A stretch of 38,877 nucleotides of DNA, taken from contig CABZDY010000004.1 of the NCBI GenBank assembly GCA_902524635.1, positions 1-38,877 on the forward strand, read 5' to 3'. Below, piece by piece: positions 34,159 through 35,994 of this stretch. The position numbers were made by a program, and so were the translations under genes. The notes under the pieces are model-generated. The model was not told the DNA's origin. It did no database searches and was given only the letters and a program-made list of their open reading frames with translations. Origin of the DNA: an uncultured Pelagibacteraceae bacterium. GTDB lineage: Bacteria > Pseudomonadota > Alphaproteobacteria > Pelagibacterales > Pelagibacteraceae. Numbering within the stretch: position 1 is the stretch's first letter; the number at the start of each line of letters is the position of its first letter.

Positions 34159-35994
34159 ATGATAGTAAATCAATTAACAGAAAAAGACGTAAAAAAAAGA
34201 CTTAAAAAAATTAATATTACCTTAAAATCTAAATATACAAGAAGTAATAAAAAGATTTTTTATAAATGTAATATTTGTAATTATTCTACAAAAGCGACTG
34301 CTTATTATGTTTGGAATAAAGGCTGCTTAAATTGTAGAAAAATATTTTCAAAAAAAAATAATAAAAAAATTCAAATTCAACAAAAAGGCTCCCTTGCTGA
34401 TCATCCATATTTGGTAAATGAATATGATAAATCTAATCCGTTAAAGCCTGATCAGATTCCAAATACATCAAGAGACAAATTAAAATGGATTTGTAGTAAA
34501 TGTGGACACAAGTGGAAAGCTGCTCTTAGAATTCGTTTAAAACCATCTAATAAAAATCAAAAATATAGAAATTGTGAAAAGTGTGCACATAAAATCAGTG
34601 GAAATAATTTAGCTATCTCATTAATTAAAAAAAGAGGTTCTCTTAAAGATATGAGTCCCGAAATAATGAAAGAATGGGATTATAAAAAAAATGAAATTAA
34701 ACCAGAAAATATTTCACCTTATTCATCTAAAAAGGTTTGGTGGCTTTGTAGCAAAGGTCATTCATGGGAAGCAAAACCATCAAACAGATTAATCGGCAAA
34801 ACTAATTGTCCTGATTGTAATAATTTCAAAACCTCTAGAGCCGAAATAAGAATATATTCTGAATTAGTAAATATAATAAATAATGTAAAATGGTCATTTT
34901 ATTTGGAAAAAAGACAATTAGATATTTACTTACCTAATCAAAAAATCGCTTTTGAAATTGATGGCCACTATCACAGTAACAAAGAAAAAAGTGATATAAA
35001 AAAAAATATTTTTTTTAAAAAAAGAAATATTAATATTATAAGACTTAGAGATGTTGGTTTAAAAAGCAAATTATCTTCTTTAGATTTTTTTGTTGATACT
35101 TCAGAAATTAAAATAAATGATCTTCAAAAAATTTATAAAATTCTTTTGAATACAAAATTATTAAACAAAAAAGAAACTTTCGAAGTTAAAAAAAGATTAT
35201 TAAAGAATAATTTTTTTAATGATGAGGAGTATAGAAGAATATGTAGTTTTCTGCCTGGACCTCCACCAGAAAAAAGTTTTGAGATATTAAAACCTGAAAT
35301 TTCACTAGAATGGGATTATAAAAAAAATTTTCCTTTACAACCAAGTATGTTTACAACTGGATCAAATCAGAAAGTAAGTTGGTTATGTTCAAATTGTGGA
35401 AAATCATTTACTCAATCAATATTAAACAGAACCAATGGTCAAGGGTGTAAACAATGTGGTAATAAAAGAGGGGTTATTAAGAGAGTTAAAAAGATAATTA
35501 AAGAAAAAGGCTCTCTCAAAAAGAAATTTCCCATTTTAACTAAAGAATTTTTAGAATTTGAGAATAAAATAAAAGCTGAAAATGTGCCTATTACGAGCAA
35601 AATGTACGCATGGTGGTTTTGTGAAAAACATAATCACAAATGGCAAGCTTCTGTATATGATAGAACGATAGGCGAAAGACATAATTGCTCTTTATGTTAC
35701 AGGGAAAATCAGTCAGAAATTACTAGACTTGCTAAGTTTAATAAAAAAAACAGTTTTCAAAAAAAATTTCCTATAATATTTAGCCACATCCTTAAAGATA
35801 AAATTAAAAATATAGATCTTAAAACTATTACTTATGGTTCAAAAGTAAAACTATGGTTTAAATGTTCTAACAAACATATCTTTCAATCTAAACCAAATAA
35901 TCAAACTTCTGATAAAAAAGATAAATTAAAATGTAGAGATTGTTATGATCAAAGAGTAAAATTTGAAGTTAATAATATCATCCTCGGTAAATAG
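34159..35994 (+). CDS. multi-zinc-ribbon (DUF4379-like) protein with central PD-(D/E)XK / Vsr-DUF559-like nuclease domain
   Basis: Repeated G-S-L-x(n)-EWDYKKN...W(W/L)xCxxxHxWxA...NRxxGxxCxxC units; central TSRAEIRIYSEL...RQLDIYLPNQKIAFEIDGHYHSNKEKSDIKKNIFFKKRNINIIRLRD. Confidence 0.85.
   Translation: MIVNQLTEKDVKKRLKKINITLKSKYTRSNKKIFYKCNICNYSTKATAYYVWNKGCLNCRKIFSKKNNKKIQIQQKGSLADHPYLVNEYDKSNPLKPDQIPNTSRDKLKWICSKCGHKWKAALRIRLKPSNKNQKYRNCEKCAHKISGNNLAISLIKKRGSLKDMSPEIMKEWDYKKNEIKPENISPYSSKKVWWLCSKGHSWEAKPSNRLIGKTNCPDCNNFKTSRAEIRIYSELVNIINNVKWSFYLEKRQLDIYLPNQKIAFEIDGHYHSNKEKSDIKKNIFFKKRNINIIRLRDVGLKSKLSSLDFFVDTSEIKINDLQKIYKILLNTKLLNKKETFEVKKRLLKNNFFNDEEYRRICSFLPGPPPEKSFEILKPEISLEWDYKKNFPLQPSMFTTGSNQKVSWLCSNCGKSFTQSILNRTNGQGCKQCGNKRGVIKRVKKIIKEKGSLKKKFPILTKEFLEFENKIKAENVPITSKMYAWWFCEKHNHKWQASVYDRTIGERHNCSLCYRENQSEITRLAKFNKKNSFQKKFPIIFSHILKDKIKNIDLKTITYGSKVKLWFKCSNKHIFQSKPNNQTSDKKDKLKCRDCYDQRVKFEVNNIILGK

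What the first reader, a model, noticed from the sequence alone, without database searches (positions are those of the whole stretch)
34159..35994. 611-aa protein with a PD-(D/E)XK-like nuclease core embedded between arrays of zinc ribbons
The translation shows one N-terminal CxxC/CxxC ribbon, two DUF4379-like units (DKLKWICSKCGHKWKA...; KVWWLCSKGHSWEAKPSNRLIGKTNCPDC), a nuclease-like core (SRAE ... LDIYLPNQKIAFEIDGHYH ... NIIRLRD), then three more units (KVSWLCSNCGKSFTQ...; AWWFCEKHNHKWQAS...; LWFKCSNKHIFQSK...). Established: DUF4379-type probable zinc-ribbon repeats can be associated with Vsr/DUF559-like nuclease folds. Inference: a DNA-targeting enzyme (homing-like, mobile or defence nuclease) with modular ribbons acting as a DNA-reading array. 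The central position of the nuclease and the solitary gene in an otherwise streamlined genome make it the strongest novel-system candidate here.
Basis: partly seen in the sequence, partly recalled or inferred. Interest (0 to 1): 0.85.

Follow-up and report, generated by a model that had tools for sequence, protein, structure and literature searches.

The report
Zinc-finger nuclease riding a gene cassette
The gene encodes a real DNA-cutting-type enzyme of a known homing-endonuclease family, studded with zinc-finger modules, and it rides on a small mobile cassette that was inserted into the front end of a conserved gene at a site where many related ocean bacteria carry different cassettes, many of them with anti-virus genes.

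Summary
The 611-aa ORF (34159-35994, +) has an N-terminal ribbon, five DUF4379 treble-clef units (218 bits) and, between units 2 and 3, a PD-(D/E)XK-type core. AlphaFold2 (pLDDT 91) and a profile search both place that core nearest the EDxHD homing endonuclease I-Bth0305I. It belongs to a family described in 2025 as a large outgroup of EDxHD/Vsr homing endonucleases, so the domain pairing is not new. 'Solitary gene' is wrong. The gene is the cargo of a 2.15-kb cassette between a truncated 5' copy (33907-33967) and the full copy (36058-36285) of a conserved 75-aa gene. That site is an insertion hotspot: 33 of 201 same-genus genomes carry truncated copies, in tandem in some, enclosing different cargo (restriction systems, caspases, transporters). 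Cassettes have attachment-site-like ends: three 10-bp repeats, and pairs of 11-12-bp repeats matched between the two ends of one cassette. The nuclease is rare (4 of 399 genomes). All five copies lie behind duplicated gene fronts: the 75-aa gene (three), tRNA-Leu and an EVE-domain gene. Most likely it is a homing-type DNA endonuclease mobilised by an integrase acting in trans. An anti-phage role is the main rival. The cassette system is the more novel part. Activity is untested.

The parts
34159..35994 (+). 611-aa DUF4379 / EDxHD-type nuclease, sole cargo ORF of the cassette
34252..34338 (+). N-terminal CxxC...CxxC ribbon (residues about 32-60)
   Evidence: sequence; C37, C56 and C59 nearly invariant
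34405..34584 (+). DUF4379 unit 1 (residues about 83-142)
   Evidence: Pfam, five stretches in all; boundaries approximate
34642..34818 (+). DUF4379 unit 2 (residues about 162-220)
   Evidence: Pfam best stretch 169-222
34822..35058 (+). nuclease core (residues 222-300): E229, D255, E266-x-D268-G, H272, D279, K282, R295
35278..35457 (+). DUF4379 unit 3 (residues about 374-433)
   Evidence: boundaries approximate
35521..35697 (+). DUF4379 unit 4 (residues about 455-513)
   Evidence: boundaries approximate
35755..35934 (+). DUF4379 unit 5 (residues about 533-592)
   Evidence: boundaries approximate
33907..33975 (+). truncated 5' copy of the 75-aa gene (MTEVNRRKLWTLIVEAGDYLRC*), left junction; similarity to the gene ends at 33967
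33968..34083 (+). left (P'-like) arm with three 10-bp-spaced direct repeats (CACACTACCT type), conserved across 41 cassettes
   Evidence: alignment A3; periodicity
34084..34120 (+). left pair of direct repeats (ACTAGTCCCCAA/ACTAGAACATTT) in front of the nuclease gene
35991..36007 (+). shared motif ATAGGATTTTATAGGAT, overlapping the nuclease stop codon
   Evidence: sequence
36008..36044 (+). right pair of direct repeats, 95% identical to the left pair
36058..36285 (+). full 75-aa gene; its first ~61 nt are the conserved attachment core
33858..33894 (+). pair of direct repeats of a different type, upstream of the truncated copy
33601..33858 (+). 85-aa gene on the left flank; in relatives it lies next to the cassette-free 75-aa gene
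   Evidence: L066, L067
36287..37333 (-). Beta_elim_lyase-family gene (threonine-aldolase-like), conserved right flank of the hotspot

Best explanation
A DNA endonuclease of the DUF4379-EDxHD (Vsr-like) homing-endonuclease group, carried as the only gene of a small mobile cassette. The cassette sits in a fixed attachment site inside the first 61 nt of a conserved 75-aa gene and brings its own copy of that front end, so the host gene survives. Shown: fold, conserved catalytic residues, duplicated target-gene front, conserved cassette ends, sporadic presence, and diverse cargo at the same site in relatives. Inferred: the cassette was inserted by an integrase-type site-specific recombinase acting in trans (none is encoded here). 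Inferred: the treble-clef units grip a long DNA target and the core cuts it with metal ions. Inferred: cutting favours the cassette, as in homing, or removes rival DNA.
For: Protein; the same domain pairing in phage group II intron homing endonucleases (PMC12350094). The relative P0004 (68% identical) also carries PF07460, which I know as NUMOD3, a module of homing endonucleases. Cassette: truncated and full copies of the 75-aa gene; 42 truncated sites in 33 of 201 genomes, none with the reversed control pattern; codons 2-19 conserved at the nucleotide level, codons 21 onward much less; conserved arm with 10-bp periodicity (0.54 against about 0.25); matched repeats at the two ends of 41 cassettes (0.722 against 0.529 shuffled, maximum 0.591). 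Cassette-free relatives: L066, L067. All five nuclease copies in 399 genomes lie behind duplicated 5' gene fragments at three loci. The tRNA-Leu site has the same layout; one insert there encodes a PF00589 integrase and Pelagibacter phages carry that tRNA half beside an integrase.
Against: No cleavage data. No integrase was found for the 75-aa-gene site, and no phage record carries its attachment site. Cargo at the hotspot is diverse and many pieces are defence genes, so this gene could be defence instead. The G085 insert lacks the 10-bp arm. Genomes are mostly incomplete drafts.
Confidence: 0.6

Rival explanations
1. Anti-phage defence nuclease: the zinc modules recognise a feature of incoming phage DNA and the core cuts it; the cassette is a shuttle for defence genes.
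For: Neighbouring cassettes at the same sites carry type I, II and IIG restriction-modification genes, GmrSD, Z1, a helicase-nuclease and caspase-like proteins. Weak similarity of the core to PvuRts1I, which cuts modified phage DNA.
Against: No PADLOC or NCBIfam match. No methylase or partner gene in the cassette. Closest relatives by profile and fold are homing endonucleases. Much of the cargo at the site is not defence (transporters, secreted proteins, enzymes).
Confidence: 0.25
2. The nuclease is itself the mover: it cuts the uninterrupted front end of the target gene and repair copies in the cassette with a replacement front end.
For: Nuclease genes lie behind duplicated 5' gene fragments at three unrelated targets (75-aa gene, tRNA-Leu, EVE-domain gene). 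The G085 and G061 inserts hold a single ORF, the nuclease. I-Bth0305I reads a target of nearly 60 bp (PMC3943268), about the length of the conserved core.
Against: Most cassettes at these sites have no nuclease yet share the ends. Arm-type repeats and an integrase in one tRNA-Leu insert point to a recombinase.
Confidence: 0.08
3. An RNA-binding or inactive protein, or a decaying gene.
For: Solved DUF4379-like domains are mitoribosomal.
Against: The frame is intact and all conserved core residues are kept.
Confidence: 0.04

Closest known systems
DUF4379/CapR plus EDxHD/Vsr homing endonucleases of phage group II introns (PMC12350094)
   Same: Several ~60-aa zinc-type modules plus a ~100-aa EDxHD/Vsr-like nuclease domain
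   Different: There the nuclease domain is C-terminal and the gene lies in an intron; here the core is internal and the gene is free-standing on a cassette
I-Bth0305I (EDxHD homing endonuclease, PDB 3r3p)
   Same: Catalytic domain fold and profile match
   Different: Different DNA-binding modules; its gene lies in an intron; in the aligned 3r3p construct the positions of our D255 and H272 are alanine, so catalytic equivalence there could not be read off
Vsr-like / DUF559 / MTES_1575 / PvuRts1I nucleases
   Same: PD-(D/E)XK-type core with D...ExDG...H motifs
   Different: Lower similarity; no treble-clef arrays
Phage satellites and integrase-dependent islands; tRNA-Leu attachment sites of T7-like pelagiphages and cyanophages (PMC3861242, PMC8776855)
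   Same: Duplicated front half of the target gene, arm-type repeats, defence cargo; the tRNA-Leu front half is a known phage attachment site
   Different: Cassettes here are 0.2-8.6 kb, mostly without an integrase, use protein-gene front ends as well, and have repeat pairs matched between their two ends
Integrons
   Same: Tandem arrays of exchangeable single- or few-gene cassettes at one site
   Different: No integron integrase found; the repeated site is the front end of a host gene; no Rfam match in 33000-36500

Membership tests
PF14311 DUF4379 | Score above the curated cut-off | tested here: met
   218.4 bits against 24.5, five stretches
EDxHD / Vsr-like homing endonucleases | Catalytic domain fold like I-Bth0305I | tested here: met
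   Foldseek 3r3p prob. 0.97-0.99; core profile E 7e-6
EDxHD / Vsr-like homing endonucleases | E, D, H, D catalytic residues conserved in that order | tested here: met
   E229, D255, H272, D279, with E266, D268 and K282, in 49 relatives; one pocket not verified
EDxHD / Vsr-like homing endonucleases | Extra DNA-binding modules tethered to the core | tested here: inconclusive
   Modules present; DNA binding not shown
EDxHD / Vsr-like homing endonucleases | Gene in an intron or intein, or next to the target it cuts | tested here: inconclusive
   Not in an intron; inserted in the front end of the 75-aa gene; target not known
EDxHD / Vsr-like homing endonucleases | Cuts a cognate site and is copied into it | not testable with these tools
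   needs biochemistry
Known anti-phage defence system | Match to a defence model or partner gene | tested here: not met
   no PADLOC hit; no partner ORF in the cassette
Integrase-dependent island / phage satellite | Target-gene fragment duplicated at the other end | tested here: met
   cassette-free relatives L066, L067
Integrase-dependent island / phage satellite | Arm-type repeats flanking the core | tested here: met
Integrase-dependent island / phage satellite | Integrase encoded by the element | tested here: not met
   none in this cassette; one PF00589 protein (311 aa, a size usual for host Xer) in the own draft genome; one integrase in a tRNA-Leu insert of another genome
Integrase-dependent island / phage satellite | Helper phage and packaging | not tested
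   no phage record carries the 75-aa-gene attachment site; viral contigs could not be searched
Integron | Integron integrase with hairpin attC sites | tested here: inconclusive
   no such integrase seen in the cargo families listed or in the incomplete own genome; attC-type folding not examined

The most novel reading that the evidence does not exclude
These bacteria run a multi-site, integron-like cassette system. Integrase-less cassettes, each with end repeats matched left to right, insert in tandem into the front ends of conserved genes (75-aa gene, tRNA-Leu, probably an EVE-domain gene), replace that front end, and are moved in trans by one or more integrases of phages or satellites. DUF4379-EDxHD nucleases serve the cassettes as homing or exclusion factors.
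Probability: 0.3. Interest if true: 0.85.

Novelty: new variant of a known kind. Interest (0 to 1): 0.58.

Why it matters
If right, it shows how a bacterium with a highly reduced genome still swaps accessory and anti-phage genes: by small cassettes placed at a few fixed gene fronts without harming the gene. It also gives a large, biochemically untested nuclease family a genomic setting (predictable targets, cassette-free controls) in which its function can be tested.

Tried and rejected
Group I/II intron or other known RNA: no Rfam match, and the full gene downstream is uninterrupted. Core housekeeping gene: rejected (4 of 399 genus genomes; 2 of 345 class genomes including the own). Attachment site of a known phage at the 75-aa gene: no match. 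The integrase of the G120 insert in known phages: no match. Papers on SAR11 islands (PMC7318151) mention flexible islands but, in the passages read, no such cassette sites; the literature search was limited to open papers.

Full report
What is there. The ORF at 34159-35994 (+) encodes 611 aa without interruption. Pfam recognises five DUF4379 (treble-clef) units with 218 bits; an additional CxxC/CxxC ribbon precedes them. The stretch between units 2 and 3 is a nuclease core. AlphaFold2 on a 54-sequence alignment gives mean pLDDT 91 and an alpha-beta-beta-beta-alpha-beta core at residues 227-298. Foldseek against solved structures finds trypanosomatid mitoribosomal mS66 and mt-SAF33 for the DUF4379 part, and I-Bth0305I (3r3p, the EDxHD homing endonuclease), 3hrl, Vsr and PvuRts1I for the core. 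A profile of 19 cores hits 3r3p at 7e-6. Across 49 relatives E229, D255, E266, D268, H272, D279, K282 and R295 are invariant or nearly so. Pocket geometry was not measured.

How unusual the protein is. It has many relatives: 919 among the 8000 best candidates of a protein search, several with the core between zinc-unit arrays. PMC12350094 described DUF4379/CapR-type modules with an EDxHD/Vsr domain in phage group II introns and called them a large unrecognised outgroup of these homing endonucleases. PHROGs calls similar phage proteins endonuclease and homing endonuclease. One 68%-identical relative also carries PF07460, which I know as NUMOD3. The protein is therefore a new member of a known kind.

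The gene is not solitary. It lies between a truncated 5' copy (33907-33967) and the full copy (36058-36285) of a 75-aa gene. In relatives G047 and G054 the same 85-aa gene, the 75-aa gene and the lyase-family gene follow each other directly with no insert (L066, L067). A DNA search of 201 same-genus genomes found the 75-aa gene in 132, and a strict pattern for truncated copies hit 42 sites in 33 genomes, with no hit for the reversed control. In the stretches examined, truncated copies lie 0.2-8.6 kb from the next copy on the same strand, sometimes three or four in tandem. The cargo between them differs from genome to genome: restriction-modification genes, GmrSD, Z1, caspases, TRAP transporters, pilin-like and other secreted proteins. 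This is an insertion hotspot with exchangeable cassettes, and the nuclease is one cargo type.

Anatomy of the cassettes. All truncated copies stop after ...GGCGATTATTTR (codon 20). Codons 2-19 of the full gene keep the same codons across genomes while later codons vary, so the front is conserved as DNA. G003, whose gene has no arm in front of it, has a much more host-like front end (8 mismatches). Behind the truncated copy comes a conserved arm (41 sequences, 74% mean column identity) with a 10-bp periodicity (identity 0.54 at lag 10 against about 0.25 at most other lags). In front of the next copy comes a pair of 11-12-bp direct repeats. The pair varies between cassettes but matches within one (7.8 of 9 against 6.0 shuffled). 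The pair beyond the left arm matches the pair at the right end of the same cassette (0.722 against 0.529, shuffled maximum 0.591, 41 cassettes). In the window both ends carry ACTAGTCCCCAA/ACTAGAACATTT. I know such arrays of short repeats beside a core as arm-type sites of lambda-like integrases; this is an analogy, not a test.

Other sites. The nuclease was found in 4 of 399 genus genomes (five copies) at E up to 1e-20. Besides the window, G024 has two copies (41.6% and 28.3% identical to the window protein) at the same hotspot, in one cassette beside another with an endonuclease VII-like gene. In G085 the nuclease gene follows a front half of tRNA-Leu(UAA), with the full tRNA behind it. In G061 it follows MQYWLLKP..., the start of an EVE-domain protein gene, with the full gene behind it; in several relatives that gene directly follows tsaD. 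The tRNA-Leu site is itself a hotspot: many of 151 genomes have one or two extra front halves. Most inserts there have a similar 10-bp periodic arm, and 20 of 29 contain the reverse complement of ATAGGATTTTATAGGAT, the motif found at the right ends of 75-aa-gene cassettes (35 of 104 windows; chance near zero). One insert, in G120, encodes a 551-aa PF00589 integrase, and Pelagibacter phages HTVC105P and HTVC109P carry the tRNA-Leu front half beside an integrase, as known for related phages (PMC3861242, PMC8776855). The G085 insert lacks the typical arm. A fourth, more distant relative in G003 (E 4e-6) shows no clear duplicated fragment.

Mechanism. The best-supported reading is a site-specific endonuclease carried by an integrase-dependent cassette. 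The insertion and its end structure are shown; the recombinase, the DNA target and the benefit are inferred. Homing-type behaviour is favoured by family, fold and sporadic occurrence. Defence is favoured by the company it keeps; PADLOC has no model for it.

Limits. Genomes are mostly incomplete drafts drawn by a sampling tool, and organism names are not shown. Whether P0002-P0006 lie in the same cassettes is unknown, because their contigs could not be fetched.

Noticed in passing
L177:1113-2768 (G120:C2): A 551-aa tyrosine integrase is the first ORF of an ~8.8-kb insert behind a truncated tRNA-Leu half whose adjoining sequence resembles the arms of integrase-less cassettes; a candidate helper element.
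   Followed up: partly
L045:3678-8465 (G024): One hotspot holds two convergent DUF4379 nucleases in one cassette, and an endonuclease VII-like gene plus a DUF1330 gene in the next.
   Followed up: partly
L118, L134, L146 (G061, G068, G074), upstream of the EVE-domain gene: A shared end sequence (AA..CTGG.GA.ACAATTA) right before the EVE-domain gene suggests a third insertion hotspot; only G061 was shown to have a truncated front copy.
   Followed up: partly
window:33858-33894, 34084-34120, 36008-36044: Pairs of 11-12-bp direct repeats differ between cassettes but match within a cassette, and recur as distinct types in different genomes; their binding partner is unknown.
   Followed up: partly
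window:36058-36285: The 75-aa gene that serves as attachment site has no Pfam, NCBIfam or PHROG match; its function is unknown.
   Followed up: no
L172, L173, L075 (tRNA-Leu sites): Three single-ORF inserts (methyltransferase, MORN protein, nuclease) lack the usual AGTC repeat arm, so a second insertion route may exist.
   Followed up: no
3r3p_A versus A5: At the positions of D255 and H272 the crystallised I-Bth0305I chain has alanine, possibly an inactivated construct; not checked.
   Followed up: no
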